DNA from: Hybos culiciformis
Taxonomy: Eukaryota; Arthropoda; Insecta; Diptera; Hybotidae
Reading direction: 5' to 3'
NCBI GenBank assembly: GCA_964007475.1
Contig: CAXFZM010000052.1
Coordinates: forward strand, 372,001-436,000
Length of the DNA stretch: 64,000 bases
Part shown: positions 1-60,700 of the stretch, piece by piece
How the letters are laid out: each line of letters starts with the position of its first letter
How positions within the stretch are numbered: the first letter of the stretch is position 1
The notes under the pieces: generated by a model
Told to the model about the DNA's origin: nothing
What the model saw: only the letters and a program-made list of their open reading frames with translations
Database searches by the model: none
Translations under genes and position numbers: made by a program

Positions 1-1383
1 TTCTGCGCAAAATGGCAGATCATTATGCTTATCGTGAAGTTCTTTCGGATAATGTTAATCTACTTCTAATATATAACCTATTTTTGAATCATCTGCGACT
101 AGTAGGACGTCAAAATTAGAGAACTCTAGCAGCCATTGAAAATTGTTATAAGGTAAATATTGAGTCATTGCCCATCCATATAAATTATTAGCATCGACAT
201 ATATTATATACAAGGGCCTTTCAATTGGGTTAAATTCTTCAGCCATATATTTATTATTTGCTTCTGAATATCTCATACTGCATTGACTTATACCCCCACG
301 AATACCTCGTTGGCACATTTTCACTTTTTCAATATCCGTCAACAACTCTAAATTTGATTTTGTGTATTTTAACATTGCATCCCAACTTAATCCTGGCGCT
401 GTGAAATAATGCGCCGGATCGAGATTATATATTTTTTTGCAAACGCCTCTAAAATTTTCAAAAACATCAGCCAGCAGCAAAACATTTGACTTCAAATATA
501 ATTCCATATAATCTTTAAAAGTTTTGCAATTAAATTTAGACCACACATTTTGAGCGTGTGCATAATCCTCTTGGCTGCATTCTTTTTCATTCAACGAATC
601 TTTAAAACTTTGTATATCCGGCAAAGAAATTTCATCAAGTTTGTCGAATGAATCAAAATAATCATAGGGAAATATCCCTTTACGCTTTATTAACTCGAAC
701 TGCTCAATATCATTACACCAACTTTTCGCTACTTTTAAATCATCATCATCCAAATTTGAAACTAATGTTTCTAATTTTGATGACATAAAACGATATGAGT
801 CGAGAAATCTCAAAAAAAAACTTTCTTTGGCGTCAATTACGATTCTTTTCGATAAACTTATGTATAACTCTTTATTAAGCGGTATAACATGTATATCTCC
901 TGGAACTGTATTCAACTCTTTAAATATTAAATGGCTGTCATATCCAGAAAAATTGTGAAAGAATATTGGAAAATAATTGGGCAGTACATATTCAAGATTG
1001 CATTTTTGATGTGCTGCTCCTCTGTATTTACCCGTAAGATGGCAATGATCTCTCACTTTCACATCAGCGCTCCGAAATTTTTGCTCGCAAATATTACAAT
1101 TTCTAGCATTTTTAAAGTTATATATTTGCATTGACGTCAATGAATCCATTCGTACTGTTTTCTTTATATACTTTTTAAACAAAAATCGGCAATCGTCAAC
1201 TAAAGATTCTATAAATTCTTTAGAACATTTTTCTCCTGTAAAAACTCTATATTTATTCAAATTTACATCGAAAGAGCTCTTTATATAATATGCAAATGCG
1301 GCTGAAACATGAACTTTTGTGTTGATTGTTGATGATATTTCGGGGTTTTGATTGCATGCATCATATGGCTTTAAAATTGACTC
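1..1383 (-). pseudogene. Protein-primed family B DNA polymerase, C-terminal part (broken)
   Basis: This is the exonuclease-to-polymerase part of a family B DNA polymerase like those of Polintons/Mavericks and adintovirus-like elements. The longest open piece is 55-1260. Counting from its first Met, an HNH/endonuclease VII-like zinc patch has Cys55, Cys58, DHCH at 71-74 and Cys87. An Exo II-like motif HNFSGYD lies near 102-108, and polymerase motif A (DANNLYG, D356) lies near the end. The frame is open upstream of that Met to about 1383. At 55-57 a single in-frame stop interrupts it, and the same frame then stays open to the window edge with family-like residues. Motifs B and C would lie beyond position 1. 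The upstream half is in another frame (1371-2441). It is an inactivated relic. Polinton and adintovirus origin cannot be separated without capsid or integrase neighbours. Confidence 0.8.
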
Positions 1384-2441
1384 GGCCCCACTATTTTAGC
1401 ATCCTTGTTTTTCCCACCAAACTCAAACCCATATAAATTAACACTTATGTCTTTATTTGATGCTTCAAACAACTTTATTTGTTTTATTATTAATGGAAAT
1501 TCTAGCTCCCTAAAATCAAGTTGGCTGACCTTGCAGTTTTCTAAATTTATAATGGAGTCTGCGATATTCTGAATTTTATATGAATTAACTCTATCTGGGC
1601 GCGCTATATACACGTTTTGCAATGCTGATATAATGCTCCACTTAAAACAATATTCATCATCATTATGCACATTAATACAGGCATGTTTTCCAGCAATATG
1701 TTTAGGTGTTTCAATATAATTTGACCCTCTTAACGGTTTATATTCGCATATATTCATTTCAAGGTGTAATATTCTTACTAGACTCCAACCACTATCTTTT
1801 TCTTGAAATTCTTCTGTTTGCGTATTGACTTTATCAATCATTTCTTCATAAATATTAGCAGCGTCATCTGCCTCTAATAGGGGCCTCATTTTTGTGTTAA
1901 ATGATTTTACACTAATAATCAATTCATCATCATCATCATCGTTTGATTTTTTCGGTTTTACATACTCACCCATCAATTCAATATTAAATTTTATCGCTCC
2001 GTGATCATATAATTCTCTTTTCAATAAATTAACTGCGTCCTTTTTTATTCTATGCATAAATTCTTTTGGGTCTAACAATGGATCATCTTTATTTTCTATT
2101 AAGTATGTTGCAATTCTAGATTTGAATAATTGCCTAAATTTTTTTATCCCATCAGAAACATCCACAGCAATTTTCCCTTTATGTTCAAATGTTCTTATAT
2201 GGCAATGCCAATTTTTTTTATCTATATATAAATCGCAATCAACACAATATTGCAAATTTGATGGTGCGGGCGCTCTTTCAATATCCGCCCCTCCACTTCT
2301 TGATGCAATTGCCTCTCTTAAAATCTTCTTTGGGGGCTCCGCCACATCATCATCTTTATGTCTTCGATGTATGTGCCGCTGTAAATTTCTAGGCAACATT
2401 TCTACTCCACACTTCCCACATAATGTTTTTGCGTTGATCAT
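1371..2441 (-). pseudogene. Protein-primed family B DNA polymerase, N-terminal zinc-finger part (broken)
   Basis: This 356-residue frame is the N-terminal half of the same polymerase-type protein. Two C2H2-like fingers are visible: C8, C11, H23, H28, and C66, C69, H81, H87. An acidic linker and the block around PLRGSNYIETPKHIA and DDEYCFKWSIISAL follow. That block is characteristic of the large insect genome proteins that carry this polymerase. The frame ends at 1371-1373, where the downstream part continues in a different frame from about 1383. Compared with the usual family layout, the stretch carrying the CxxC knuckle and most of Exo I is absent, so a deletion and a frameshift coincide at this junction. 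Start chosen: the ATG at 2441, just before the first finger. The gene is not functional as it stands. Confidence 0.75.
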
Positions 2442-3213
2442 CTTAATTTTAGAAGGCTTATGTTTTAAAATCGGGTTGTGTCGATCTATTTATATTATAA
2501 TTTTTATGATTCATTGGCGAAATAGTTCTATTAAATGTATATGTATTATTTTTAATGGCAAAAAATTAAAAAATTACTATGATTAATATGTTTATGATGA
2601 ATTGATTTTGTTGCTCCATTTCTTGCTAGAAAAAATATTCATGTACGATGGCTTATTTTGTTTTTTACTATAAAATTCTTATAACCACAACAATAGTGGG
2701 GCGAAATAAAATTCCCCATTCATATTTCAAATAGAAGGTTATAATATTTTTAATAAAGTTTATTGTTTACTTTTTCCTAACTATTTTTTATTATAAAATT
2801 CTTAAAACCACAACAATAGTGGGAAAAAATTATATTGAATTCAACTTCAAGGTCGAGGGAAATAAAATTCATTATAAATAAGAAAAAATATTAAAATATT
2901 ACTAAAATAAATGTCATCCTTTTTCAAAATGTCTTTTTTTGTTAAGATCTTTTCTTGTTTTGTTAAGATCTTTTCTTTTTTCTTAATATCTTTTTATTTT
3001 CAGCACTAAGCTTTTCACCACTTACTTCGAACTTTAACCACTTCGAGCTTTTCACCACTTACTCCAATTTTGTGGGAGGACCCTCACATAATTTTGTGGC
3101 AAAGTCCCTACATCCTACCTACTTATATATATATGTATATATATTTATTTATTTATATATATAATGTAATAATGTGCGCATTAGATATATTTTTTTATTC
3201 AAAAAAATACTGA
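2442..3213. other. Non-coding AT-rich spacer with short repeats
   Basis: No gene seen. A segment around the motif AACCACAACAATAGTGGG occurs twice (about 2665-2705 and 2788-2825), each followed by a run of A. GTTAAGATCTTTTCTT-like units recur at 2940-2985. CACTTACT/CGAGCTTTTCACC units repeat at 3010-3065. TA-rich DNA precedes the transposon. Confidence 0.5.
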
Positions 3214-3215
3214 TA

Positions 3216-3270
3216 TAGTACGATTCAAATCACTTGACCAATCCGTTATGCAAAGTTTTCCCTTTCCATT
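3216..3270 (+). repeat. Left TIR of the DD82E transposon
   Basis: This 55-bp repeat matches the reverse complement of 5288-5342 with one mismatch (T versus C in CAAAGTTTTCCC / CAAAGCTTTCCC). It is preceded by the TA target site. Confidence 0.92.
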
Positions 3271-3739
3271 ACAAAATTTGCATGAGCTTTTTTCTTAAAT
3301 AATTTCTCCTACATTTCGTATACAGTCCATACAAATTATTGCATTAAAAAAAAAAAAAATTGCGACAGAACACACGTCTTTATACTTCTAAAATTAGAAG
3401 GGCACTAAATATTTTTATTTTTTAATCATATCGTTACCGTTCGAATTTTTTTTTTAAATGCACAGTAGGCTAGTACAACGTTATTATTTTTTTTTGTATA
3501 GAAAATCAAAATTAATAAAAAATGTGGCAAAAACTAACAAACAAATTTCTATTCGCAACACTTATTTAATTTTAAATATTTTTTGTTATTGTGGTCCGTA
3601 AAATAGTTTTAATATCACGAAATATCGAAAGCAGACGTTTTTTTCACCCATATTTTTATAATTAATATAATAATTATAATTAATTTTTATAGTTAAAAGT
3701 GATAATAAACTTAAAAAATTTAATTTTGAATTTTGGAAA

Positions 3740-5143
3740 ATGAGTTTCGTTCAAGGAAAACCAATAAAAAGCCAAGCTAGACGATTAATTTATAAAATTT
3801 TTTTAAAATTTTTGAAAGAAGCTGTAGAAGCTAAAGTTCAAGATAGCAGGTCACAAGCTTATAGCAGAACTGTTGAATTGTCAGAGGTCTCGGACAAAAC
3901 TGCCAGGCGAATCGTTCAAGAAGGAGAAGAATGTAAAGGAATATTTAACTCTCCAACTAAACAGGTACAGCACAAAAAATGGAAAACAGAAATTGATAGT
4001 TTTGATCAAGCGGCTATTCGCAGATTAATTTATAATTTCCATCTAGAAGAACAACAAGTAGTAACACTAAAAAAATTATTACCAAAAGTTAACGGAAATT
4101 TAAATTTAACATTAAGTTTAACTTCATTAAATAGAATTTTAAAAAAAATGGGTTTTAAATTTAGAAAAACGGAGAACAACAGAAAATTGCTATGCGAAAG
4201 AGCAGATATTCGGCTTGCACGGATTAAATATATCTCCAAGATACAAGAATACAGAAGAAAAAATTTGAATATTGTGTACTTAGACGAAACATATATACAT
4301 GCCGGTCATACAAAGTCGAGGTGTTGGTCTGATTTAAGCAATAAGGGCTTATTAACTAATATTTCAAAAGGCAACAGACTAATTGTCCTACATGCTGGAG
4401 GTGAAAATGGGTTCATTCCTAATTGTTTCCTTATTTTCAAATCTGGAACTAAGTCTGGAGATTACCATGATGAAATGAATTTTGAAAATTTCTCCAAATG
4501 GTTAGTCGAACAATTGTTGCCAAATTTAGTTACACCTTCAATTATTGTACTAGATAATGCGTCTTACCACAACAAACTTGATGAAAAAGTACCTACAATG
4601 AATTTTCGAAAAGCGGAGATGATAAGTTGGTTACGAGATAAGGGTATAAAAAATTATTTATATTTAACTTAATTTGTATTTATTTATTCTAATTTTTCAG
4701 GTGTGGATTTTTCTGAAAATTTGTTAAAACCAGAACTATACGAAATTATAAAACAAAAAAAGGATAGGAATTTGAAATTTCAAATAGACAAAATTATTAA
4801 AAATGCTGGGCACGAAGTTCTTCGTCTACCACCTTACCATCCTGACTTAAATCCTATTGAAAAAATTTGGGGCATTGCAAAGGGTCGTGTAGCTGCTCGC
4901 AATACCACCTTCAAATTAAATGATGTACTAGAATTTGCAAAAGAGGAATTCGACAAAATAAGTGCCAACGATTGGAAGAGTGTATGTGAGCATATTAAAA
5001 AGGAGGAGCAAAATTATAGAAAAACAGATATTTCATGGGATACATTTACAGACAAATTAATTATAAATTTAAATGATAGCTCCAGCAGCTCAACAGACTT
5101 TGAGACAGATAGTTGGCTGGCTCCTAAAAAACAAAAGAATTAA
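3740..5143 (+). CDS. DD82E (Sailor-like) transposase, one intron
   Basis: This is a transposase that would cut and rejoin the element's ends in the nucleus. Exon 1 is 3740-4643 and exon 2 is 4701-5143. The 57-bp intron 4644-4700 starts GTATAA and ends TTTTTCAG, and splicing gives a 448-residue protein without a stop. Residues 1-150 look like helix-turn-helix DNA-binding domains (TARRIVQEGEE; SLNRILKKMGFKFRK). The catalytic core has D182 (YLDETYIHAG), D272 (VLDNASYHN) and E355 (PPYHPDLNPIEKIWG). There are 82 residues between the last two, against 34-41 in ordinary Tc1/mariner enzymes. The C-terminus is Ser-rich and ends in a basic PKKQKN tail, a plausible nuclear signal. Start: first ATG of the frame, about 470 bp inside the left TIR. 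Unspliced, translation would stop before E355, so splicing is needed for a full catalytic core. Confidence 0.88.
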
Positions 5144-5287
5144 TTTCAAATTTATTGAATATGTATAATTTCATATTATGTATAATTATGTATAATTTCA
5201 TATTACAATATCAAAAGCTCTTTTTTATGTATTGGAAACTAAAATATTATTCCCCTTTGAAAAAAGTTCAGAAATTAATTTTTTTTT

Positions 5288-5342
5288 AATGGAAAGGGAA
5301 AGCTTTGCATAACGGATTGGTCAAGTGATTTGAATCGTACTA
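5288..5342 (-). repeat. Right TIR of the DD82E transposon
   Basis: This is the inverted partner of 3216-3270, followed by TA. Similarity stops sharply inside both TIRs. Confidence 0.92.
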
Positions 5343-5344
5343 TA

Positions 5345-7245: not shown

Positions 7246-9990
7246 TTAAACCAGCTTTAAGGGATGCCTTAGAGATATTAAGGTCAAAAACATGATGATT
7301 TTTATTAGCAAAAGCAAGCATTCGAGAAATGGGATCATTGCATTATATTCGGTTCTATGGAAAGCAACTTCCAATAAGTTAGTAGTACGGAGGCTTGTGG
7401 TATTAACTCGAAAGTTGATCTGCTCCAGAATAAAAGAAATAATTTCACCAATAATAATTTGATAAATGAAAACAACATCAGTAAATTCACGTCTGTCTTG
7501 AAGAGATTCAAGCTTAATGAGATTTAAGCGCTCTCTATACGGTGGAAGGATTAAGTATCCTCCCAAGGAAGATGCCTCAATGCAAATCTAAGAAATTTTT
7601 TTTGGACGGATTCGACTCTATTGATGTCGACAGAAAAAAAGGGTGACCATACTTGAGAGGCATATTCTAACAATGGTCTTACAAGAGATGTAAAAAGAAA
7701 TCTAGTTATAAATGGGTCACAGAACTCTCTTGACCAACGTTTAATAAAACCTAGAGTGGAATTTACTTTACTTACAATTGAATTAAAATGTGGTTGAAAT
7801 GTCAATTGGCAATCACATAAAATGCCGAGATCTCTAACTTCATTGACTCTGGGAATACGAATATTATTAAGTGTATATTGAAAATTAATAGGATTTCTTT
7901 TCCTTGAAAATGATATATTTTGACACTTAGACACATTAAGAAGAAGATTATTCTTAATACACCAAAGGCCAAAGCTATTAAGATCAGTTTGTAAGAGATT
8001 GCAGTCTGAAAGACCAGAAATTTTTTTTTAAATTTTCATATCATCGGCATAAATGTTATGATCGCTATCCGAAATGATGAGTGAAACATCATTAATAGCG
8101 ATCATGAAATCAAGTGGACCGAGATGGCTACCTTGAGGCACTCCAGAAGTAGCTGTGTATGTTGTAGATATTGCAGAGCGAAATTTGACCTGATAATCCC
8201 GAGGACGAAGCCAAGATTTTTCCACTCAATAAAAGAAGGTGGGAAACCATACGCAGCCAATTTAAATAAAATAATCTGATGAGGAAGAACATTGAATGCT
8301 TTGCTAAAGTCCGTGTATACGGAATCAGTCTGAAAACCTTTCTCCATCTTATCCCTATAAGGTGAAGTAATTTCTATAAGATTGGTAGTAGTAGACCTAC
8401 CCTTAAGAAACCCATGCTGATTATGAGTAATAAAATTCTTGCAATAAAAATGTATATCTTCAGAAATAACAGCTTCAAAAAGCTTAGGAATTGAAGAAAC
8501 TTTAGCTATTGGACGATAATTTAAAACGTCAGCTTTGCAACCTTTCTTGAAAAGGGGTATGATATATGAATGTTTCCAGATTTTCGGGAAGTAACCGGTT
8601 AATAAAGATCTATTAAAAATAATAGATAGAGGATTACATAAAGTAGAAGCACAATTTTTCAAGATTATCGGTGGGACACCATCAGGTCCAGAAGAACAGT
8701 CATCTTGAAGCTTAGATAAAACTTGAAAAGTTCATTCACTTCAATGCATATTGCGGTCATAGAAGTTTGCGGTTAATTGTTTAAATAACTGAAATAGGCA
8801 GTATCAACACTGAAGTTTGAGTCAGAAAAAGAACTGGAGAAATGGTTAGCAAAAAAATTAGCTACAGTTAGGTCATCATTGGAAGAGGTATTCTTGAAAC
8901 TAAGAGTTTGAGGATAACTATCCCTTTTCCTCTTAGAATTAATAAAACTAAAGAATCTTTTAGGATCCTTTAATATGTCAAGCTTTGTCTTGTTTAAATA
9001 CTCCTCATATTGAGACTCAAACAAGATTCTGAACTCATTGAATAAATATTGAAAAGTCTCATGGTCGGCTTCACTTCCGGTTATTAAGAAATTTTTCCAA
9101 GCCTTATTTTTCCTGTTTCTTAGAGCTTTTAGTTCTCTATTAAACCAGGGAGGCGAACAAGATCTCATGTCCCTTCTAGTAAAAAGTGGACATGATAATG
9201 AAAAACCATTGAAAAGAATTTCATAAAAGGAGTCAGCCATCGAGTCCAAGTCCAAATCCACATCATTAAGGAATGAAAAGTTAGCCTGGCTGAGGTAACT
9301 ATTGAGTTTAATGAAATCAGTTTTCCTATAATTGAACTCAGAAGAGCTTTGCGGAATTATTTCATTGGACTCAAAAACACTAAATATAAAATTCATAGGG
9401 GGGTGAAATCTATTTCTTGAACAGTGCAATTAGCTGGATCGGAAAAGAAAATGAGATCCAACTGTCTATTCGCTTTGAAAATTTGAAAGAGAGGAACTGC
9501 TGAAACAGCATCAAGAAAATCAATCTCCACACATGAGGAGGGTGTAGCAGAAATCAGGTAGTCAACCTCATCAGATTCAATCCATCTCAAATAGGGTAAA
9601 TTGAAATCACCCAGAAGTAAAAATTCATCAGTTTCTGATAGAATGTCAGAAACAAAATTAATAGCATTTAAAACCTCATCGTAACCAGAAGTGTTACCGG
9701 GGCTAATATAAAAAAATGAAGATAGATTTACAAGAAGTCTTCAGTTTAATAGCAACAGCATCAATGAAAGAATAAGAAGGAAGAGAAATCACAGTAACAT
9801 CAAGGTGAGGACGTGTCGCTATTAGAGCTCCAACACCTTTCGGAATATTTGAGCTGTCACCCTCAATATTAGGGTAACGATCTTTACGAAAAATTTGAAA
9901 GCAGGGAGAAAAAAGTTCGTTACTAAGGATGCCTTTATGAAGCCAAGTCTCCGCTAAGGCATAAATGTCAAAATTGAGTGTATCAGATTT
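7246..9990 (-). pseudogene. LINE ORF2: endonuclease-reverse transcriptase (frameshifted)
   Basis: This would nick target DNA and copy the element RNA. Reading from high to low coordinates: endonuclease pieces carry AETWL near 9940 and LLLGDFNLP near 9620, followed by the ANRQLDLIFFSD block in 9393-9590. A linker frame at 8773-9429 has PPWFNRELKALRNRKNKAW. The reverse transcriptase in 8102-8662 has SYIIPLFKKG, LNYRPIAKVSSIPKLFE, HGFLKGRSTTTNL and YTDFSKAFNVL. Then 8028-8225 has ATSGVPQGSHLGPLDF and YADDMKI, and 7551-7934 has the C-terminal block VRPLLEYASQVWSP, with a tail at 7246-7566. At least five frame breaks separate these parts. The catalytic YADD survives although the gene is dead. Confidence 0.8.
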
Positions 9991-21570: not shown

Positions 21571-24500
21571 CTATATCTTTTTTAAGTTATTATTATGAAT
21601 TTTCTTTAATTTATTATTTATTTCTATTATTGAATTTACTCCGTCTCTTTCGACGATTCTGTAAGGTCCTTGAAAAGGATAATCTAATTTCTTTCTATTA
21701 AAATTTTTTATCATTACCCTATCATTTACTTTCAAATTCGCAGGATTAATATTAAGATTGTATTTTTCATTTCTAGCTATTTTATATTTAATTAGTTCTT
21801 CTCTAGCTGATTTTAGTGCACAAGATAATTTTAAATTTAATTCGTTTAAATAGTTATCATAGTTTATGAAATTTAGTGGTTCATTATTTTTAAGTGTAAT
21901 ATTTGTCGGTAATTCAGGTGTGTTTCCAAAAATTAATTCAAATGGCGCATAATGAGTGTCTGAATGAGGTGTAGTATTATAGGAAAATAAGAAAAATGGG
22001 ATTAATTCAACCCAATTGTTGCTATGATTGCATGTTAAAAAATATTCGTTTAGTACTCTGTGATTTCTTTCTACTGAACCTAATGTTTGATGGTGATAAG
22101 GTGTTGATTTTTGGTGATTAATATTAAAAGTTTTACAAATGTTCATAAATAGTTCGTTTACAAATTCTGTACCTAAATCAGTTTTGATATTTTTTATATT
22201 TCCATATCTTAATATGATATTTTCTGTTAAAATTTTTGCTATCGTAATAGCATCTTTAGTTTCTATAGGAAATGCTTCTATGTATTTAGTTAATTCGCAT
22301 TGAACTGTGAGTATATATCTATAATTATTACAAATTCTTAAAGGGCCTACTGTATCGACTTGTATGGTTTCGAAAGGTCTATTTGGAGTGTCAGTAATTT
22401 GTAATGGTTCTTTAATGTTTCTAACTTGTTTTGATTTAATACATTCGTTGCAATTTTTCACGTAACTTTTAATCATTTTATGCATGTTTTTCCATATATA
22501 TTTTTGTCTAAGTTTTATTATCATTTTCCTAACACCGATGTGTCCACTTATATTGTTACTATGATTGTCTTTTATTAATTGTTTTATTAAATTTTGATCT
22601 GTTATTTCGATAGGAGCTTTGAATAAAATTATTTTTAATTTATTTTTCGAATTATCTTTTTCCTGTAGTTGATTAAATATGTTTTTAAATTCTTGAATGT
22701 TAATGTGGTTAAATAAGGTATCATTATTATTTATCGCGACTGTGAAAATTTTATTTTGAGCTAATAAGAGTTTCATTTTATTTAAAATTGATTTTATATT
22801 AATTCTCTTTTTATTAAAATATATTTTATAATTATTATTGAATGTTATTTCTGTTGTACCAGTTGAAGTTTCTATGAAGTTTACTTTCGGAATTCTTTTT
22901 ATATCGTTAATTGAGATACTGTGCCAAATGTGTAGATTTTTATTTATAGGGTTTTTAGCTTGTTCTAGTGACCTAGTTATTTGTCTGGTTATCACGTTAA
23001 TATCTTTTTCTGGCGTTATTGGGATCATAGATTTTAAAATGTTGGAGTTTAAATGTATTCTTGATAAAGCGTCTGCGTTTGTATTCATTTTTCCTTGTTT
23101 GTATACTATATCAAAATCGTAATCACTGAGATCTAGTCTAATACGCGTCATTTTAGATGAAGGGTTGTTGTGCGTAAATAATCCTACTAAAGGTCTGTGA
23201 TCTGTTACGACGATGAATTTTCTGCCATATACATAGGGTCTAAAAAAATTGATTGTCCAGTGAATAGAAAGCAATTCTTTTTCTATTATTGGTTTGTTTA
23301 GTTCTGCAGAATTTAATGTTTTACTGGCATAGCTTATTGGTAAATCTTGGCCAATTTCTCCTTGAGATAAGACTGCTCCGAAGGCGGATTGTGAAGCGTC
23401 TGTTGTGATTATAAAAGGTTTGGAATAATCTGGATATTGTAAAATGGGAGGGTTAATTAATTTATTTTTTAAATTTAAAAATGCATTTGTACAATTTTCA
23501 TTCCAATTAAATATTGATTTCTTTTTTGTTAGATCGTTTAAAGGTTTTGCTATGGCTGCAAAGTTTGGTATAAATTTTCTGTAATAATTGAAGAATGCTA
23601 CAAAACGTTTTATTTCATCAGCATTTTGGGGTTGTGGATAATTTTTTACTGCAAAAAGTTTAGTTGGGTCTGTTTTTATGCCTTTATTAGTTATTAAATG
23701 GCCTAAATAAATTACTTCTTTCTGTAAGAAACTACATTTTTCTGGATTTAGCTTTAAATTATATTTTCTTAATCGTTCAAATACTTTTATTAAATTTTCG
23801 TTGTGGTGTTTAATAGAACATCCAAATATTATTATATCATCAACATAAATAAATGATTCTGAATTTAAACCTGATAAGGCAATTGTTAACATTCGCTGAA
23901 AACTATTTGAAGAGATTTTTAAACCAAATGGGAGTCTTTTAAATTGAAAATGTCCATTATTAGATGAAAATGCTGTACAAGGTCTTGAATTTTTCTCTAA
24001 TTCGATTTGGTGAAAATAACTGACCATATCTAATGTGGTAAAGTATTTTGCTCTTCCTAAATTATCTAGCACGTCTTCTAATTTGGTCAAAGGAAATTTG
24101 TCATTTTGAATTTTTTTGTTTAGTTGACGGAAATCTACTACTAGTCTCCATTTTTTGGTGTCATTAGAGGATTTCTTTGGTACTAAGAGTAAAGGTGAGT
24201 TATATGGACTGTAAGAGTGTTCAATAATATCTTCTTTCAATAATTTATTTACTTGATCATTAATTTCTGTTAATTGCGAATTTGGTAATCTATAATTTTT
24301 AATATAAATAGGGTTTTTATTTTCTAAGGCAATATTTTGTTTATAAAAATTATTAGTCGTTAATGAATCACCTGGTACGTAAAATATGTCGTGGAATTGT
24401 TTGCAAATTTTAAGTGTTTCATTTTGAGCTTTTGGGTCGTCTGGGTTAATGCTTAATATTTGTTCTAAATGTAATAATCGATCGTGATCGTTATTTTCAA

Positions 24501-25101
24501 TATTCACTATGTTATAATTGTTTAGAGGTACTGTTTTAGGCTTATAATTTTTTATGATCATTGTTTTATCATTCGTATTTAAAATTTTAACATTCGATAT
24601 GCCATTTTTGGCTATAATCGTGTTGGCTATGAATATTCCTGGTGTTATTTCTTCACTCAGGACAAGTGTCTCTTCTGTTCTCTGAACATGTAAAGGACAT
24701 ATAATTTCAGTTCTGGCTGGTATCACCAGTTGACTGATACAATTAGAATTAATGGGTATATTTATTACCTCATCACTTATCGTAAGTGATAATTCATTTG
24801 TTTCAAAATTAATTAATGCGGAGTATTTCATTAAGAAATCTCGGCCTAAGATTCCATCCGTTTTGATTGGAAATTTATCTTCTACACAGTGTAGATTTAT
24901 AAAACATTTTTTGTTTTCAATAATAAAATGTGTTTGTAGTGTGCCTAAAGATTCGTGTACGTTATTGCCTATTCCTGTAATTTTGCAAGTACTATTATTA
25001 TTAATGTCAATTGAATTTGTGAATTGTTCTTTGATGACAGATATGTCTGCACCAGTATCAATCATGAATTTAATTGGATTATAATAATTGGGTCTTTGCA
25101 T
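21571..25101 (-). CDS. pol: Pol polyprotein of Ty3/gypsy element (PR-RT-RH-IN)
   Basis: One 1,176-residue frame without a stop. Aspartic protease: D15-T-G-A. Reverse transcriptase: LPFGLKISSNSFQ, LDMVSYFHQ (D358) and YVDD at 419-422. RNase H: D568 (ITTDAS), the EKELL helix near 607-611, and D634 (VVTDHRPL). Integrase: zinc module H847/H854/C884/C887, then D916, D975 and E1011 with exactly 35 residues between the last two (DD35E). No chromodomain. The frame is -1 relative to gag and is open upstream of this Met across gag's end, so Gag-Pol is probably made by -1 frameshifting and the Met is only a frame marker. All catalytic residues are present, so it looks functional. Confidence 0.95.
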   Translation of the reverse strand: MQRPNYYNPIKFMIDTGADISVIKEQFTNSIDINNNSTCKITGIGNNVHESLGTLQTHFIIENKKCFINLHCVEDKFPIKTDGILGRDFLMKYSALINFETNELSLTISDEVINIPINSNCISQLVIPARTEIICPLHVQRTEETLVLSEEITPGIFIANTIIAKNGISNVKILNTNDKTMIIKNYKPKTVPLNNYNIVNIENNDHDRLLHLEQILSINPDDPKAQNETLKICKQFHDIFYVPGDSLTTNNFYKQNIALENKNPIYIKNYRLPNSQLTEINDQVNKLLKEDIIEHSYSPYNSPLLLVPKKSSNDTKKWRLVVDFRQLNKKIQNDKFPLTKLEDVLDNLGRAKYFTTLDMVSYFHQIELEKNSRPCTAFSSNNGHFQFKRLPFGLKISSNSFQRMLTIALSGLNSESFIYVDDIIIFGCSIKHHNENLIKVFERLRKYNLKLNPEKCSFLQKEVIYLGHLITNKGIKTDPTKLFAVKNYPQPQNADEIKRFVAFFNYYRKFIPNFAAIAKPLNDLTKKKSIFNWNENCTNAFLNLKNKLINPPILQYPDYSKPFIITTDASQSAFGAVLSQGEIGQDLPISYASKTLNSAELNKPIIEKELLSIHWTINFFRPYVYGRKFIVVTDHRPLVGLFTHNNPSSKMTRIRLDLSDYDFDIVYKQGKMNTNADALSRIHLNSNILKSMIPITPEKDINVITRQITRSLEQAKNPINKNLHIWHSISINDIKRIPKVNFIETSTGTTEITFNNNYKIYFNKKRINIKSILNKMKLLLAQNKIFTVAINNNDTLFNHINIQEFKNIFNQLQEKDNSKNKLKIILFKAPIEITDQNLIKQLIKDNHSNNISGHIGVRKMIIKLRQKYIWKNMHKMIKSYVKNCNECIKSKQVRNIKEPLQITDTPNRPFETIQVDTVGPLRICNNYRYILTVQCELTKYIEAFPIETKDAITIAKILTENIILRYGNIKNIKTDLGTEFVNELFMNICKTFNINHQKSTPYHHQTLGSVERNHRVLNEYFLTCNHSNNWVELIPFFLFSYNTTPHSDTHYAPFELIFGNTPELPTNITLKNNEPLNFINYDNYLNELNLKLSCALKSAREELIKYKIARNEKYNLNINPANLKVNDRVMIKNFNRKKLDYPFQGPYRIVERDGVNSIIEINNKLKKIHNNNLKKI

Positions 25102-25139
25102 TAGGATAAAAAATGTTGGTGAATTGTTTTTAAAATTAT

Positions 25140-26438
25140 TTATTGTATATCTAAAGCATTCATTTCCCCGATTACCGTTTGACCCGAATCGGGGGTCCGT
25201 CCGTTTCCCGATTCTAATGCGTTAACGTTCCTATTATTAAAATTTTGGTCATCGTTTCTACGATTGTTATTATATCTGTTATTATAGGAATTATTATTCC
25301 TGTTATTATTAATTGGTTGAGAGTTATTGTAGTCTCTATTTCTATAATAGTCAGTGGAATTCGTATGTTGCTGATTTCTATTATAGTTACGATTATCATT
25401 AGTATTTGATCTATGATTACTATTATTCATATTATTATTACTAGTACGATTATTATGATTATTTTGATTATTTTGATTATTATGATTATTATGTCCATTC
25501 CTTGGTCTATTATTATTATTAAAATTATTGCTAGTATTTCTATTATTATTATAATTTCTTCTACCATTATTTCTATTATTATTGTTGTTATTATTCCTAC
25601 TATTACTTCGATTTGAGTAGGTATTTATTTTATTACTATTATTATTAGTATTATTACTATCTATTTCCAAAATAAGTTTTATTGCTTCTGTAAAAGTTTT
25701 TGGTTGTGCCGCCATAATGACTGATTGTATGGGTTCTACTAAGTTTGTCTTAAGGCATTGCAGAGCAAATTTATCATTAACTTTTATTATTACAGCTTTT
25801 GCGTCAGCTGTTTCATTTTTAGACTGTATCATATTTAATTCATTTATTAGTATTTCTAATTTCTCAGCATATTTTGTGGCTGATATTGACCTATTCTTTC
25901 CTAATTGGTCGATTTCGTTGTGTATCTTAGTATAGGTTCTAGTGCTCATGAAATTATTATTTAAAATTTTTTTTAAAGTTTCAATTGTTGTAGGTTCTGT
26001 CTCATTTATAATTCTATTTTTCACCTTTTGTGATAATTTTATGTTATAAATGAATTTTATTAATTTTTCCCTATCTGCTACTTTAGTATTATCGTGAATG
26101 TATTCCGTTATGCTTATGAATTCTTGCAATTTAGCATAGGAACCTTCAAATAATGGGATTATCTTATTTAAATTTGCTATGTCAAAATCCATCTTATTAT
26201 TTATGATTTCTATCAAATAAGATTTAATTAATGTCACGTATTTCGAATACTCTGTTCTTAAACCTGTCTTCCCTGTTCTCAAATTTGATTCTCTAACAGA
26301 GCTTATAAATAGCGATTTGTTGTAAATTACTTTAGTTAATTCAGCCTTTGCTGCAGAGATATTAAATTTTGTTTTTATTATATTATTGTAGAGTTTTTCT
26401 AATTGTTCAATTTCTTTTTGGAATTTCTCAAGGGTCAT
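25140..26438 (-). CDS. gag: Gag-like protein of Ty3/gypsy element, Asn/Arg-rich tail
   Basis: A 432-residue structural protein that would form the particle and bind RNA. Residues 1-270 are helical and charged, as in gypsy capsids. Residues ~270-400 are almost pure Asn/Arg/Tyr/Ser repeats in place of CCHC zinc knuckles, none of which is visible. Asn/Arg tails substituting for knuckles are known in some insect gypsy elements. The stop at 25140-25142 lies 38 bp before the pol Met, with pol in the -1 frame. Start: first ATG (26438). The AAT-rich DNA gives many spurious Ile/Leu frames on both strands. Confidence 0.9.
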   Translation of the reverse strand: MTLEKFQKEIEQLEKLYNNIIKTKFNISAAKAELTKVIYNKSLFISSVRESNLRTGKTGLRTEYSKYVTLIKSYLIEIINNKMDFDIANLNKIIPLFEGSYAKLQEFISITEYIHDNTKVADREKLIKFIYNIKLSQKVKNRIINETEPTTIETLKKILNNNFMSTRTYTKIHNEIDQLGKNRSISATKYAEKLEILINELNMIQSKNETADAKAVIIKVNDKFALQCLKTNLVEPIQSVIMAAQPKTFTEAIKLILEIDSNNTNNNSNKINTYSNRSNSRNNNNNNNRNNGRRNYNNNRNTSNNFNNNNRPRNGHNNHNNQNNQNNHNNRTSNNNMNNSNHRSNTNDNRNYNRNQQHTNSTDYYRNRDYNNSQPINNNRNNNSYNNRYNNNRRNDDQNFNNRNVNALESGNGRTPDSGQTVIGEMNALDIQ

Positions 26439-26688
26439 GCTATGAAAAAATTCTTGTGTGCAAAATTTGAATTAAACTGAAAAATATTTTTAATTGAAAA
26501 TTTAATCATAGAGGGACAGAAAAAAAATTTTTTAGGTTTTATTAATTTCTTAATAGGGTATTAATTTTGTTGTTTCCTATGATAATTATTTAAAATCATT
26601 AAAATATATTTGGGTCATTTATTAATTTGTTAATAGGGTATTGAAAAATATTTTTAGGGTCTTTGCTAAATTTTAATGCAATCTTAAT

Positions 26689-28785: not shown

Positions 28786-30247
28786 ATGGATTTATCGCAA
28801 CAAGAACTTTTGGCTGTTCAGCATATATTTTTGTCTGATAGCAGCAGCAACGGTAGTAGTAGTGAAGATGAAGATAAAAATAAAATTCAAAAAAAAAAAG
28901 AAAAGATTTTGGGTACGACCATATTATAAAGATAGGCTCAATACTGGTGCTCATAAGAGCGTTGTTGGGTTTTTGAAGGATTTGAATGATGACCATTTGT
29001 TTAGTAAGTATTTCAGAATGAATCGATCCCTTTTTGAAGATTTGCTGTTACTTACTGGTCCTGAAATAACAAAACAAACAGTATTAAGAGAACCAATAAG
29101 TGCTGATATGCGTTTGTGTATAACACTGAGGTAAAAACCAATCAGATTTTTAGATTTCCTCTAAACATTAAAAAAAAAACTCTTTGCAGATATCTTGCGA
29201 CGGGAGAGTCTCAACAAAGTTTATCTTTGGCTTACAAATGTGCTCCATCAACGGTGCATAACATTATTGTTGAAACCACATTCGCAATAACAAATGCTCT
29301 TAAAGAAAAGGTCTTTCCGAAAATAAACAAAGATTATTTCAGGAAAATTGCAGAAGGATTTAACAACAGATGGCAATTTCCACATTGTTTGGGTGCAATA
29401 GATGGGAAGCATGTTACAATTCAAGTATGAATATAATATTATTTTCTATTTTATTTTATCTAACAATAAATTGTTTTTTAGACACCTCCAAACTCTGGAT
29501 CAGAGTTTTATAATTACAAGAAGACCCATTCAATTGTAGTTTTAGCAATTTGTGATCATAATTATGAATTTTTTATGTGCGACGTTGGTGCTGCAGGTAG
29601 ACAAAGTGACGGTGGTATATTTCGACATAGTCCTTTTGGGAAAAAATTTTATTCGAATGATCTACAGTAATAAAATGATTTTTACTTAATTTTATAATTT
29701 TTAGAGATTTGAATTAATTTATTTACATTTCAATTGTAGGATTCCAGATGCAGCTGACATTGCTGAGGATTTTGTTGATGCGCCATATGTTTTTGTTGCT
29801 GATGATGCCTTTTCACTGTCGGAAAATATGCTAAAGCCATATGCAAAAAAAAATCTTAATGAAGAAGAAAGGATTTTTAATTATAGGCTAAGCAGAGCTC
29901 GACGTATGATCGAAAACTGTTTTGGAATTTTAAGCTGTAAATGGCGAATTTTTTTAACCACAATAAATGCCAAAGTCAGTACGGTTGAACAAATAATATT
30001 GTCTTCCATTTGTTTACACAATTGGGTTCGACAAAATGATCCAAATAATTATATCACAAAGGAATTAGTTGATCATGAAGAAAATGGTATATTTGTTGAA
30101 GGTAGCTGGAGGAAAGAAACGCAAATGCTCTTACCGTTACAAAAATGCAACAAAAATGCTTCAATGGCAGCAAAGGTTATTCGCAACAAATTTGCGCAGT
30201 ATTTTGTCGGTAGGCGAAGAGTCCATTGGCAAGATAAAATAAAATAA
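28786..30247 (+). pseudogene. PIF/Harbinger transposase, four exons, one frameshift
   Basis: A HARBI1-like DDE transposase. Exons are 28786-29130, 29190-29424, 29482-29666 and 29740-30247. Introns of 59, 57 and 73 bp have GT-AG ends. Blocks seen: RPYYKDRLNTGAHKSVV and FRMNRSLFEDLLLL (N-terminal), LATGESQQSLSLAYKCAPST (HTH), HCLGAIDGKHV (first Asp), GAAGRQSDGGIF (second Asp) and ARRMIENCFGILSCKWR (Glu). All three catalytic positions are kept. The exons sum to 1,273 bp, one base too many: the frame from ATG 28786 is lost in the A-run at about 28889-28898 and the protein continues in the next frame. It is a near-intact but disabled gene unless the run length is a sequencing error. It lies 76 bp downstream of the gypsy TSD copy at the insertion site. 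Confidence 0.85.
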
Positions 30248-43018: not shown

Positions 43019-44757
43019 CGAACCGAAACCTTCAATGTAAACTAACTTCCAGTTGCCGGCCACTGCTGGCACTTTGTTCAAAGTTGGTCTTACGTCCACT
43101 TAACATTCCCCAATCCCTGGTATTTCCCAAAGTGCGGGCTTTCGGATTCATTTAATCAAGCAAAACTTCAAATTACGTACATTTTCATACAAAACGAACC
43201 GAAACCTTCAATGTAAACTAACTTCCAGTTGCCGGCCATTGCTGGCACTTTGTTCAAAGTTGGTCTTACGTCCACTTAACATTCTCCAATCACTGGTATT
43301 TCCCAAAGTGCGGGCTTTCGGATTCATTTAATCAAGCAAAACTTCAAATTACGTACATTTTCATACAAAACGAACCGAAACCTTCAATGTAAACTAACTT
43401 CCAGTTGCCGGCCACTGCTGGCACTTTGTTCAAAGTTGGTCTTACGTCCACTTAACATTCTCCAATCACTGGTATTTCCCAAAGTGCGGGCTTTCGGATT
43501 CATTTAATCAAGCAAAACTTCAAATTACGTACATTTTCATACAAAACGAACCGAAACCTTCAATGTAAACTAACTTCCAGTTGCCGGCCACTGCTGGCAC
43601 TTTGTTCAAAGTTGGTCTTACGTCCACTTAACATTCTCCAATCACTGGTATTTCCCAAAGTGCGGGCTTTCGGATTCATTTAATCAAGCAAAACTTCAAA
43701 TTACGTACATTTTCATACAAAACGAACCGAAACCTTCAATGTAAAAACTAACTTCCAGTTGCCGGCCACTGCTGGCACTTTGTTCAAAGTTGGTCTTACG
43801 TCCACTTAACATTCTCCAATCACTGGTATTTCCCAAAGTGCGGGCTTTCGGATTCATTTAATCAAGCAAAACTTCAAATTACGTACATTTTCATACAAAA
43901 CGAACCGAAACCTTCAATGTAAAAACTAACTTCCAGTTGCCGGCCACTGCTGGCACTTTGTTCAAAGTTGGTCTTACGTCCACTTAACATTCTCCAATCA
44001 CTGGTATTTCCCAAAGTGCGGGCTTTCGGATTCATTTAATCAAGCAAAACTTCAAATTACGTACATTTTCATACAAAACGAACCGAAACCTTCAATGTAA
44101 ACTAACTTCCAGTTGCCGGCCATTGCTGGCACTTTGTTCAAAGTTGGTCTTACGTCCACTTAACATTCTCCAATCACTGGTATTTCCCAAAGTGCGGGCT
44201 TTCGGATTCATTTAATCAAGCAAAACTTCAAATTACGTACATTTTCATACAAAACGAACCGAAACCTTCAATGTAAACTAACTTCCAGTTGCCGGCCATT
44301 GCTGGCACTTTGTTCAAAGTTGGTCTTACGTCCACTTAACATTCTCCAATCACTGGTATTTCCCAAAGTGCGGGCTTTCGGATTCATTTAATCAAGCAAA
44401 ACTTCAAATTACGTACATTTTCATACAAAACGAACCGAAACCTTCAATGTAAACTAACTTCCAGTTGCCGGCCACTGCTGGCACTTTGTTCAAAGTTGGT
44501 CTTACGTCCACTTAACATTCTCCAATCACTGGTATTTCCCAAAGTGCGGGCTTTCGGATTCATTTAATCAAGCAAAACTTCAAATTACGTACATTTTCAT
44601 ACAAAACGAACCGAAACCTTCAATGTAAACTAACTTCCAGTTGCCGGCCACTGCTGGCACTTTGTTCAAAGTTGGTCTTACGTCCACTTAACATTCTCCA
44701 ATCACTGGTATTTCCCAAAGTGCGGGTTTTCGGATTCTTTTAATCAAGCAAAATTTC
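43019..44757. repeat. 176-bp satellite array, ten units
   Basis: Units start with CGAACCGAAACCTTCAATGT at 43019, 43195, 43371, 43547, 43723, 43901, 44079, 44255, 44431 and 44607. Two units are 178 bp (extra AA in GTAAAAACTAAC). Units differ by only a few bases. The last unit degenerates at about 44735. The GC-richer core GTTGCCGGCCACTGCTGGCA contains an inverted repeat. No conserved protein frame. Confidence 0.95.
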
Positions 44758-48799: not shown

Positions 48800-51700
48800 T
48801 ACTTATCCAGACTGATTATAAAACAATTCGAAGACTCTAGGCTAATCGTAGATATAATTGAACCCCTTTTCGTGTTTATAAAAATAAAAAAGTTGTAAGT
48901 TCCAAATATTATTTCCAATATAGTTTGACCATAGCTAAAATTTTTCCTCATAAAAAATTAAAAAGAACTCGTTCAGTGCCAGCTAGATTATACTTATCCA
49001 GACTGATTATAAAACAATTCGAAGACTCTAGGTTAATCATAGCTATAATTGAACCCCTTTTCGTATTTATAAAAATAAAAAAAAAATATAAGTTCCAAAT
49101 ATTATTTCCAATATAGTTTGACCATAGCTAAAATTTTTCCTCATAAAAAATTTAAAAAAACTCGTTCAGTGCCAGCTAGATTATACTTATCCAGACTGAT
49201 TATAAAACAATTCGAAGACTCTGGGTTAATCATAGCTATAATTGAACCCCTTTTCTAATTTCTAAAAATAAAAAAATTATAAGTTCCAAATATTATTTCC
49301 AATATAGTTTGACCATAACTAGAATTTTTCCTCATAAAAAATTCTAAAAAACTTGTTCAGTGCCAGCTAGATGATGCTTTGCCAGACTGATTATACAAAA
49401 ACTCGAAGACGCTAGGTTAACCATAGCTATAATTCGACCCCGTTTTCATTTTCTAAAAATCCAAAAAAAAATATAAATTTCAAATATTATTTCCAATATA
49501 GTTCGACTAATGCCAAATATTTTTTTCTTCAAAAATTCTAAAAAACTTGTTCAGTGCCAGCTAGATGATGCTTTGCCAGACTGATTATACGAAAACTTGA
49601 AGACGCTAGGTTAACAATAGCTATAATTCGACCCCGTTTTCATTTCCTAAAAATCCAAAAAAAAATATAAATTTCAAATATTATTTCCAATATAGTTCGA
49701 CCAATGCCAAATATTTTTTTCTTCAAAAATTCTAAAAAACTTGTTCAGTGCCAGCTAGATGATGCTTTGCCAGACTGATTATACGAAAACTTGAAGACGC
49801 TAGGTTAACAATAGCTATAATTCGACCCCGTTTTCATTTCCTAAAAATCCAAAAAAAAAATATAAATTTCAAATATTATTTCCAATATAGTTCGACCAAT
49901 GCCAAATATTTTTTTCTTCAAAAATTCTAAAAAACTTGTTCAGTGCCAGCTAGATGATGCTTTGCCAGACTGATTATACGAAAACTTGAAGACGCTAGGT
50001 TAACCATAGCTATAATTCGACCCCGTTTTCATTTTCTAAAAATCCAAAAAAAAATATAAATTTCAAATATTATTTCCAATATAGTTCGACCAATGCCAAA
50101 TATTTTTTTCTTCAAAAATTCTAAAAAACTTGTTCAGTGCCAGCTAGATGATGCTTTGCCAGACTGATTATACGAAAACTTGAAGACGCTAGGTTAACCA
50201 TAGCTATAATTCGACCCCGTTTTCATTTCCTAAAAATCCAAAAAAAAATATAAATTTCAAATATTATTTCCAATATAGTTCGACCAATGCCAAATATTTT
50301 TATCTTCAAAAATTCTAAAAAACTTGTTCAGTGCCAGCTAGATGATGCTTTGCCAGACTGATTATACAAAAACTCGAAGACGCTAGGTTAACCATAGCTA
50401 TAATTCGACCCCGTTTTCATTTTCTAAAAATCCAAAAAAAAATATAAATTTCAAATATTATTTCCAATATAGTTCGACCAATGCCAAATATTTTTTTCTT
50501 CAAAAATTCTAAAAAACTTGTTCAGTGCCAGCTAGATGATGCTTTGCCAGACTGATTATACGAAAACTTGAAGACGCTAGGTTAACCATAGCTATAATTC
50601 GACCCCGTTTTCATTTTCTAAAAATCCAAAAAAAAATATAAATTTCAAATATTATTTCCAATATAGTTCGACCAATGCCAAATATTTTTTTCTTCAAAAA
50701 TTCTAAAAAACTTGTTCAGTGCCAGCTAGATGATGCTTTGCCAGACTGATTATACAAAAACTCGAAGACGCTAGGTTAACCATATCTATAATTCGATCCC
50801 GTTTTCATTTCCTAAAAATCCAAAAAAAAATATAAATTTCAAATATTATTTCCAATATAGTTCGACCAATGCCAAATATTTTTTTCTTCAAAAATTCTAA
50901 AAAACTTGTTCAGTGCCAGCTAGATGATGCTTTGCCAGACTGATTATACAAAAACTCGAAGACGCTAGGTTAACCATATCTATAATTCGACCCCGTTTTC
51001 ATTTCCTAAAAATCCAAAAAAAAATATAAATTTCAAATATTATTTCCAATATAGTTCGACCAATGCCAAATATTTTTTTCTTCAAAAATTCTAAAAAACT
51101 TGTTCAGTGCCAGCTAGATGATGCTTTGCCAGACTGATTATACGAAAACTTGAAGACGCTAGGTTAACCATATCTATAATTCGACCCCGTTTTCATTTCC
51201 TAAAAATCCAAAAAAAAATATAAATTTCAAATATTATTTCCAATATAGTTCGACCAATGCCAAATATTTTTTTCTTCAAAAATTCTAAAAAACTTGTTCA
51301 GTGCCAGCTAGATGATGCTTTGCCAGACTGATTATACGAAAACTTGAAGACGCTAGGTTAACAATAGCTATAATTCGACCCCGTTTTCATTTCCTAAAAA
51401 TCCGAAAAAAAATATAAATTTCAAATATTATTTCCAATATAGTTTGACCAATGCCAAATATTATTTTCTTCAAAAATTCTAAAAAACTTGTTCAGTGCCA
51501 GCTAGATGATGCTTTGCCAGACTGATTATACGAAAACTTGAAGACGCTAGGTTAACCATAGCTATAATTCGACCCCGTTTTCATTTCCTAAAAATCAAAA
51601 AAAAAATATAAATTTCAAATATTATTTCCAATATAGTTCGACCAATGCCAAATATTTTTTTCTTCAAAAATTCTAAAAAACTTGTTCAGTGCCAGCTAGA

Positions 51701-53235
51701 TGATGCTTTGCCAGACTGATTATACAAAAACTCGAAGACGCTAGGTTAACCATATCTATAATTCGACCCCGTTTTCATTTCCTAAAAATCCAAAAAAAAA
51801 TATAAATTTCAAATATTATTTCCAATATAGTTCGACCAATGCCAAATATTTTTTTCTTCAAAAATTCTAAAAAACTTGTTCAGTGCCAGCTAGATGATGC
51901 TTTGCCAGACTGATTATACGAAAACTTGAAGACGCTAGGTTAACAATAGCTATAATTCGACCCCGTTTTCATTTCCTAAAAATCCAAAAAAAAATATAAA
52001 TTTCAAATATTATTTCCAATATAGTTCGACCAATGCCAAATATTATTTTCTTCAAAAATTCTAAAAAACTTGTTCAGTGCCAGCTAGATGATGCTTTGCC
52101 AGACTGATTATACAAAAACTCGAAGACGCTAGGTTAACCATAGCTATAATTCGACCCCGTTTTCATTTCCTAAAAATCCAAAAAAAAATATAAATTTCAA
52201 ATATTATTTCCAATATAGTTTGACCAATGCCAAATATTATTTTCTTCAAAAATTCAAAAAAACTTGTTCAGTGCCAGCTAGATGATGCTTTGCCAGACTA
52301 ATTATACAAAAACTCGAAGACGCTAGGTTAACCATAGCTATAATTCGACCCCGTTTTCATTTCCTAAAAATCCGAAAAAAAATATAAATTTCAAATATTA
52401 TTTCCAATATAGTTTGACCAATGCCAAATATTATTTTCTTCAAAAATTCTAAAAAACTTGTTCAGTGCCAGCTAGATGATGCTTTGCCAGACTGATTATA
52501 CGAAAACTTGAAGACGCTAGGTTAACCATAGCTATAATTCGACCCCGTTTTCATTTCCTAAAAATCCAAAAAAAAATATAAATTTCAAATATTATATCCA
52601 ATATAGTTTGACCAATGCCAAATATTATTTTCTTCAAAAATTCAAAAAAACTTGTTCAGTGCCAGCTAGATGATGTTTTGCCAGACTGATTATACAAAAA
52701 CTCGAAGACGCTAGGTTAACCATAGATATAATTCGACCCCGTTTTCATTTCCTAAAAATCCGAAAAAAAATATAAATTTCAAATATTATTTCCAATATAG
52801 TTTGACCAATGCCAAATATTATTTTCTTCAAAAATTCTAAAAAACTTGTTCAGTGCCAGCTAGATGATGCTTTGCCAGACTGATTATACGAAAACTTGAA
52901 GACGCTAGGTTAACCATAGCTATAATTCGACCCCGTTTTCATTTCCTAAAAATCCAAAAAAAAATATAAATTTCAAATATTATATCCAATATAGTTTGAC
53001 CAATGCCAAATATTATTTTCTTCAAAAATTCAAAAAAACTTGTTCAGTGCCAGCTAGATGATGTTTTGCCAGACTGATTATACAAAAACTCGAAGACGCT
53101 AGGTTAACCATAGATATAATTCGACCCCGTTTTCATTTCCTAAAAATCCGAAAAAAAATATAAATTTCAAATATTATTTCCAATATACCTAGTTCGACCA
53201 ATGCCAAATATTTTTTTCTTCAAAAATTTGAAAAT
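48800..53235. repeat. 194-bp satellite array, about 22-23 units
   Basis: The phrase GTTCAGTGCCAGCTAG recurs from 48970 to 53042 with spacing of almost always 194 bp (191-196). Units carry TTTGCCAGACTGATTATAC, GACGCTAGGTTAAC and ATAATTCGACCCCGTTTTCA. The first three units are more diverged and the interior ones near-identical. Near the right end two units alternate as a 388-bp pair present twice. Confidence 0.95.
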
Positions 53236-60009: not shown

Positions 60010-60700
60010 GGACAGTTGCCCAAATGACATTTGCCAATCTGACATTTGCCCACGGACATTTGACAATCTGACATTTGACAATCTGACATTTGACAATCTG
60101 ACATTTGACAATCTGACATTTGACAATCTGACATTTGACAATCTGACATTTGACAATCTGACATTTGACAATATGACATTTGACAATCTGACATTTGACA
60201 ATCTGACATTTGACAATCTGACATTTGACAATCTGACATTTGACAATCTGACATTTGACAATCTGACATTTGACAATCTGACATTTGGCAATATGACATT
60301 TGACAATCTGACATTTGACAATCTGACATTTGACAATCTGACATTTGACAATGTGACATTTGACAATCTTACATTTGACAATATGACATTTGACAATCTG
60401 ACATTTGACAATATGACATTTGACAATCTGACATTTGACAATCTTACATTTGACAATCTGACATTTGCCAACGGACATTTGCCAACGGACATTTGCCAAA
60501 CGGACATTTGACAATCCGACATTAGCCAACGGACATTTGCCAATTCTACATTTGCCAACGGACATTTGCCAATTCTACATTTGCCAACAGACATTTGCCA
60601 ATCCTACATTTGCCAATGGACATTTGACAATCCGACATTTGACAACGGACATTTGACAATCTGACATTTGACAATCTGACATTTGACAATCTGACATTTG
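60010..60700. repeat. 15-bp minisatellite (GACATTTGACAATCT), locus 2
   Basis: About 27 consecutive copies at an exact 15-bp period lie between 60054 and 60470, with rare point variants (AATATG, AATGTG, AATCTTAC). Then come ~14-15-bp variants CGGACATTTGCCAA and TTCTACATTTGCCAA, then three more standard copies. The period of five codons keeps frames open on both strands and explains the long repetitive ORFs. Confidence 0.97.

What the first reader, a model, noticed from the sequence alone, without database searches (positions are those of the whole stretch)
3216..5342. Apparently intact DD82E (Sailor-type) transposon with an intron splitting its catalytic core
The triad is D182, D272, E355, with 82 residues between the last two, the spacing reported for the Sailor superfamily. 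TIRs match 54/55, the TSD is TA, and no stop interrupts the spliced frame. The 57-bp intron lies between the second Asp and the Glu, so unspliced transcripts give an enzyme without its Glu. Tissue-specific splicing could gate activity, as the P element's retained intron does.
Basis: partly seen in the sequence, partly recalled or inferred. Interest (0 to 1): 0.75.

Follow-up and report, generated by a model that had tools for sequence, protein, structure and literature searches.

The report
Intact Sailor jumping gene with intron
This is a complete and apparently intact DNA transposon of the known Sailor group with a small intron in its enzyme gene, and its many short relatives in the same genome show that it duplicates only the two letters TA on insertion, not the four letters TATA reported for the group.

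Summary
In 118 of 121 aligned proteins (window plus 120 homologues) the D-E spacer is exactly 82. The intron is real by sequence evidence: 1 of 22 stop-free GT-AG pairs restores 82 residues; sister copies 77-79% identical carry an intron at the same point, and dN/dS is about 0.1 on both sides. The one near-identical copy is broken, and no second intact gene was found. New here: 1,213 copies of the terminal 19-mer (reversed-pattern control 1) mark a family of miniature elements, and seven insertions with empty sites each show one TA. So the duplication is TA; the TATA printed for Sailor (PMC8533490) is, here at least, TA plus the element's own first two bases. Splicing as a tissue switch is untested: no RNA data. 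Ordinary as a transposon; the duplication point corrects a published description.

The parts
3214..3215 (.). left TA target-site duplication
   Evidence: sequence; TA rather than TATA from empty sites of related miniature elements
3216..3276 (+). left terminal inverted repeat (61 nt, 59 matching the right one; first 55 nt match 54)
3740..4643 (+). transposase exon 1 (start to the first base of codon 302; D182 at 4283-4285, D272 at 4553-4555)
   Evidence: homologues; constraint
4644..4700 (+). 57-bp phase-1 intron, GTATAA...TTTTTCAG, 10.5% G+C; in-frame stop at 4670-4672 if retained
   Evidence: same position in sister copies L018, L019, L020
4701..5143 (+). transposase exon 2 with E355 at 4859-4861 and the stop codon
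5282..5342 (-). right terminal inverted repeat
5343..5344 (.). right TA target-site duplication

Best explanation
A young, structurally intact cut-and-paste transposon of the Sailor (DD82E) group. Its transposase is made from a two-exon mRNA. The enzyme is expected to bind the 61-bp terminal repeats, cut the element out with an RNase H-like DDE active site and insert it at TA, duplicating TA. Shown: structure, conservation, the shared intron position, TA duplication in related miniature elements, and about 1,200 related ends in the genome. Inferred: that the mRNA is spliced as drawn, that the enzyme is active, and that this copy or near-identical lost ones moved the miniature elements that share its ends.
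For: Homologues to E 5.4e-156; 118 of 121 with an 82-residue spacer; DDE_3 at 4.4e-13; the model of homologue P0001 gives Mos1, Sleeping Beauty and SETMAR chains as its 17 best PDB matches; intron position shared with three 77-79% copies and dN/dS 0.07-0.12 in the five exon comparisons of those copies that are not saturated; second copy at 99%; 597 + 616 ends, control 0 + 1; seven insertions with a TA empty site.
Against: No RNA or activity data. Only one intact copy was found, and the DNA search scored only 40 of 641 candidates. No empty site was found for the window element itself. The dN/dS comparisons use broken copies at dS above 1, so they are rough; one exon comparison is saturated, and two decayed fragments give 0.51 and 0.34. 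Outgroup trees did not recover Sailor as one group.
Confidence: 0.9

Rival explanations
1. The intron is a regulatory switch: when it is retained, a 310-aa protein with the N-terminal part and both Asp residues but no Glu is made and represses transposition, as in the P element (recalled).
For: The retained-intron frame is open to 4672 and would keep residues 1-301. The intron has been kept in one place over a divergence of dS above 1.
Against: No RNA data. Intron length differs widely (57 against 472 and 493 bp), and one sister copy carries several kb of insertion in it. Homologues called on contigs of up to 284 and 222 kb from the source 'jgi' (P0044, P0116) read straight through this point; I assume these are plain open-frame calls on genomic DNA, in which case the group does not generally need the intron.
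Confidence: 0.06
2. Target duplication is the 4-bp TATA, as published for Sailor, and the element starts at GTACG (3218-5340).
For: The window element is flanked by TATA on both sides, and PMC8533490 reports TATA as predominant and GT as a usual start of the TIR.
Against: 32 of 55 end pairs are TAGA...TCTA, which is not a direct repeat; 53 of 55 have the outer TA on both sides. Four TATA-flanked and three TAGA/TCTA insertions have empty sites with one TA. These are miniature elements, not full-length copies.
Confidence: 0.04
3. The 57 bp is a random insertion into a dead copy, not an intron.
For: No RNA evidence; the window is 72% A+T and stop-free GT-AG pairs are common (22 in the stretch tested).
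Against: Same position in three sister copies, exact restoration of 82 residues, constraint on both sides, very low G+C (10.5% against 32-33% in the exons).
Confidence: 0.03

Closest known systems
Sailor (DD82E) superfamily, IS630-Tc1-mariner group (Shi et al. 2021, PMC8533490; parts 1-3 of 6 and word searches seen)
   Same: DD82E catalytic spacing, TIR length near the reported 23-57 bp, TATA next to GT at both ends of the window element, motifs IVYLDET and NPIE, relatives in insects
   Different: Target duplication is TA by empty sites, so the TIR starts [T/G/C]AGTACG; the gene has an intron, which word searches of the paper's main text do not find for Sailor; a family of miniature elements shares the ends (the word 'miniature' is not in the paper)
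Tc1/mariner (Tc1, Sleeping Beauty, Mos1)
   Same: TA duplication (recalled and stated); RNase H-like DDE fold; the left end of copy 2 reads TA-CAGT, like Tc1's TA-CAGT (recalled)
   Different: 34 residues between the last two catalytic residues in SB100X, Tc1A (recalled letters) and Mos1; only the 3' part matches by profile, E 5.8e-8 to SB100X
Tc1-like elements with spliceosomal introns in molluscs (Puzakov 2020; seen only as a reference and one sentence of another paper)
   Same: Introns in a transposase gene of this large group
   Different: A different family, said to have 3-5 introns; I did not read that paper
P element of Drosophila (recalled)
   Same: Intron retention could in principle give a truncated product
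   Different: Unrelated transposase; no evidence of regulated splicing here

Membership tests
Sailor (DD82E) | DD82E (range DD78-111E) catalytic triad | tested here: met
   D182, D272, E355; 82 residues; 118 of 121 aligned proteins have 82
Sailor (DD82E) | Monophyletic clade apart from Tc1/mariner, Gambol and pogo | tested here: inconclusive
   Trees with 23 of the 120 listed homologues were saturated (end branches up to 10); AU p 0.356 for Sailor held as one clade, 0.123 for the window held with Tc1/mariner, so neither is rejected; Gambol and pogo not included
Sailor (DD82E) | TIRs, mostly 23-57 bp, usually starting GT or CC after TATA | tested here: met
   TATA|GTACG at both ends of the window element as that paper would read it; TIR 54/55 and 59/61
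Sailor (DD82E) | 4-bp TATA target-site duplication (reported as predominant, not universal) | tested here: not met
   One TA in the empty site of 7 of 7 informative miniature-element insertions; not tested on a full-length copy. The paper gives it as predominant only, so I keep membership on triad and sequence
Tc1/mariner proper | DD34-41E/D spacing | tested here: not met
   82 residues; the Glu chosen aligns with the segment holding Sleeping Beauty's Glu
P-element-like splicing control | Tissue-specific intron retention giving a repressor | not testable with these tools
   No RNA data

The most novel reading that the evidence does not exclude
The 4-bp TATA target duplication, given as one of Sailor's main differences from Tc1/mariner, is a reading error across the whole group: Sailor inserts at TA and duplicates TA like the rest of the IS630-Tc1-mariner elements, and the extra TA is the first two bases of its own inverted repeat (TA-[T/G/C]AGT..., comparable to Tc1's TA-CAGT).
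Probability: 0.55. Interest if true: 0.5.

Novelty: new member of a known kind. Interest (0 to 1): 0.4.

Why it matters
It gives an intact Sailor that can be tested directly, with defined ends, a defined intron and many short non-autonomous relatives in the same genome. It corrects the end coordinates to be used when building a Sailor donor: ends placed at GTACG instead of TAGTACG would lack the element's two terminal bases. It also removes, for this lineage, a reported exception to the rule that this transposon group duplicates TA.

Tried and rejected
TATA as target duplication: taken from the paper first, then rejected on end tables and empty sites. Deep tree with SB100X, Mos1, Tc1A and IS630-like proteins: built twice, the second time without three rows (L003, L004, L005), uninformative because of long branches. 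Scan of genome contigs with homologue P0001: nothing; with alignment A1: 6 loci of distant relatives, of which L007 was not looked at and L008 not used; viral contigs: 2 short matches, not looked at further; plasmids: none. Rfam and tRNA scans of the window found nothing, and Pfam on nine other window frames found only mobile-element domains and one endonuclease VII domain. Homologues of the second frame of the degenerate relative at C3:13081500: none. One empty-site candidate (L036 against L020) was set aside because it has a deletion at the junction; weak matches (L060/L022, L068/window) were asked for, which failed, and not shown again. One dN/dS script failed and was rerun. A first divergence estimate for the miniature elements mixed orientations and was replaced. 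only waited.

Full report
What was checked. The window holds an element at 3216-5342, flanked by TA on each side. Its first and last 55 bases match 54 of 55 as inverted repeats, and 59 of 61 over the longer stretch (repeat finder gives 63 nt at 97% with the flanking TA included). A 22-base piece of the end occurs only at these two places in the window, with none in 100 shuffles. Exons 3740-4643 and 4701-5143 give 448 residues without a stop, with D182, D272 and E355. The structural statements of the finding are correct.

Which family. A search of about 5.8 billion proteins gave 913 relatives; the best 120 were listed, E down to 5.4e-156, identity 40-56%. The few with names are uncharacterised proteins of insects (Pieris, Amyelois, Neodiprion, Diabrotica, Ostrinia, Homalodisca, Zerene, Parnassius) or plain 'transposase' or 'hypothetical protein'. 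In the alignment of the window protein with these 120, the second Asp and the Glu are invariant in 121 of 121, the first Asp is present in 120 (N in P0111), and the spacer is exactly 82 in 118; P0001, P0097 and P0118 have 83, 84 and 81. The Sailor paper (PMC8533490; I read parts 1-3 of 6 of its text, plus word searches) describes DD82E with a range of DD78-111E, TIRs of 23-57 bp in most species, and TATA duplications in the majority. A profile of 24 sequences (the window and 23 of the 120) aligns the Glu segment with that of Sleeping Beauty. A model of the best-scoring homologue, P0001 (mean pLDDT 80.8, pTM 0.58), has Mos1, Sleeping Beauty and SETMAR chains as its 17 best PDB matches. The spacer of that model holds helices 316-325 and 336-347 beyond the second Asp (P0001 D297), and the window's intron maps to the loop between them (window residue 302 is P0001 residue 327 by the shared Trp). 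Trees with Tc1, mariner and IS630-like proteins were saturated and did not settle the deep placement.

The intron. Of 22 stop-free, frame-keeping GT-AG pairs with a donor between about 4561 and 4830, only 4644/4700 restores 82 residues. In the same genome three sister copies, 77-79% identical to the window in exon 1, have an intron at the same place: 493 bp (L018, whose donor GT is changed), 472 bp (L019) and 7,116 bp (L020, by my reading a nested insertion). Synonymous divergence from them is above 1 where it can be computed, and dN/dS is 0.113 and 0.108 (exons 1 and 2 of C402), 0.073 and 0.116 (C1:72.7M) and 0.091 (exon 1 of C1:84.6M). Exon 2 of C1:84.6M is saturated, and two further decayed fragments give 0.51 (42 codons) and 0.34 (119 codons, 12 stops). 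These copies are broken and dS is high, so the ratios are rough. Constraint on both sides means that exon 2 was translated in the lineage, and hence (inference) that the intron was removed. Homologues P0044 and P0116, from source 'jgi' with contigs of up to 284 and 222 kb, read straight through this point; if they are plain open-frame calls on genomic DNA, as I assume, the intron is a feature of this lineage and not of the group. The Sailor paper's main text reports no intron by word search; the only matches for intron and splic are in a cited title. One sentence in PMC10379824 (passages seen) says that some Tc1-like elements have 3-5 introns. A regulatory role remains a guess.

Copies. The genome (342 Mb, 509 contigs, unnamed) has one other near-full copy at 99%, C1:88961121-88963225 (that DNA search scored 40 of 641 candidates). 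It differs by 9 substitutions and deletions of 1, 9 and 11 bp. Five substitutions are coding: none synonymous, four missense and one stop at Trp297. The 11-bp deletion shifts the frame. The protein searches gave 14 exon-1 segments (22 of 22 first-look candidates scored) and 16 exon-2 segments (64 of 64), and no second intact gene among them. By contrast the terminal 19-mer, with up to 2 mismatches, occurs 597 times forward and 616 times reverse, against 0 and 1 for the reversed control: roughly 600 elements if each has two ends. Only the first 100 places, on the first 50 Mb of C1, were listed; among them I count 41 facing pairs, 40 of them spaced under 180 bp and one about 1 kb, and 18 ends without a listed partner. 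I fetched 40 of the 41 pairs and used 12 further loci picked. In 42 elements of 175-180 bp between the outer GTACG motifs the median pairwise difference is 3.9%, and 77 of 861 pairs differ by 1% or less, so part of the spread is recent. A typical one (L027) consists of the left 108 or so bases of this element and an inverted copy of its first 65.

Target duplication. From these 52 loci I could pair 55 sets of ends (two pairs in L033 overlap, and five loci share one surrounding repeat, so about 50 are independent; the loci were chosen for well-kept ends). 32 read TAGA...TCTA, 14 TATA...TATA, 4 TATA...TCTA, 3 TAGA...TATA and 2 other; the outer TA is on both sides in 53. TAGA and TCTA are inverted copies, not direct repeats, so the inner two bases belong to the element. 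Empty sites decide it. A repeat carrying one such element has an unoccupied copy with one TA (a pattern that allowed 0-2 further bases, one hit; aligned to L073, L086 and L094). L034 against L025 and L029 against L021 show the same. For the TATA-flanked kind I searched 15 joined flanks (14 miniature elements and the window); only 40 of 3,515 candidates were scored, and 4 of the 15 gave empty sites (L027, L084, L087, L095), each with one TA and no gap at the junction in the 7 stretches that I took. That is 7 of 7 informative insertions; one more candidate (L036/L020) was uninformative. The window element itself gave none, and no full-length copy was tested. The paper built TSD logos, and the words empty and paralogous are not in its main text. 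My literature searches listed no paper that by title or abstract questions the TATA reading; I looked inside only PMC8533490 and PMC10379824, and subscription papers are mostly not held.

How it works. Shown: structure, conserved active site, TA duplication in the related miniature elements, shared intron position. Inferred: splicing yields the active 448-residue enzyme; the N-terminal helical part binds the 61-bp ends; the DDE domain cuts and joins at TA; and the same enzyme, from this or lost copies, moved the short elements. Rated as a new member of a known kind with a useful correction to the description of its group.

Noticed in passing
G000:C3:13081500-13082398 (L048:1231-3305): A degenerate Sailor-like gene: two long open frames matching the transposase at about 30-34%, by eye without the first Asp motif and with a long tail rich in Ser and Thr; possibly a host-adopted transposase or an old decayed one. 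No homologue of its second frame was found.
   Followed up: partly
genome-wide, e.g. L025-L036, L059-L098: 1,213 copies of this element's terminal 19-mer in the host genome; those examined are mostly near-palindromic elements of about 180 bp that end TAGA/TCTA or TATA/TATA.
   Followed up: yes
L003 (CAILVZ010000202.1, filed as an Akkermansiaceae bin): A contig in a bacterial bin encodes a distant Sailor-like protein with a much longer spacer (141 residues in my alignment); it may be a eukaryotic contaminant of the bin.
   Followed up: no
window 55-2489 (-): Two overlapping open frames; the first has an endonuclease VII domain (Pfam) and looks like the DNA polymerase of a Polinton or virus-like element (recalled resemblance only).
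   Followed up: no
window 21571-26471 (-): A gypsy-type retrotransposon with a 1,216-residue open frame (protease, reverse transcriptase, RNase H, integrase) and an overlapping gag-like frame without a Pfam match.
   Followed up: no
window 8102-8731 (-) and 29705-30247 (+): Pieces of a retrotransposon reverse transcriptase (RVT_1) and of a DDE_Tnp_4 (Harbinger-type, recalled) transposase.
   Followed up: no
window 43019-44757, 48807-53228, 60025-60702: Long tandem arrays of 176 bp (9.9 copies, 99% matches), 194 bp (22.8 copies, 96%) and 15 bp (45.7 copies, 90%) units; the 15-bp array leaves long open frames in several frames.
   Followed up: no
G000:C402:323924-324112 and 335099-336719; L020: One sister copy appears to be split by about 11 kb near residue 63 of its transposase, and another (L020) carries roughly 6.6 kb inside its intron.
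   Followed up: partly
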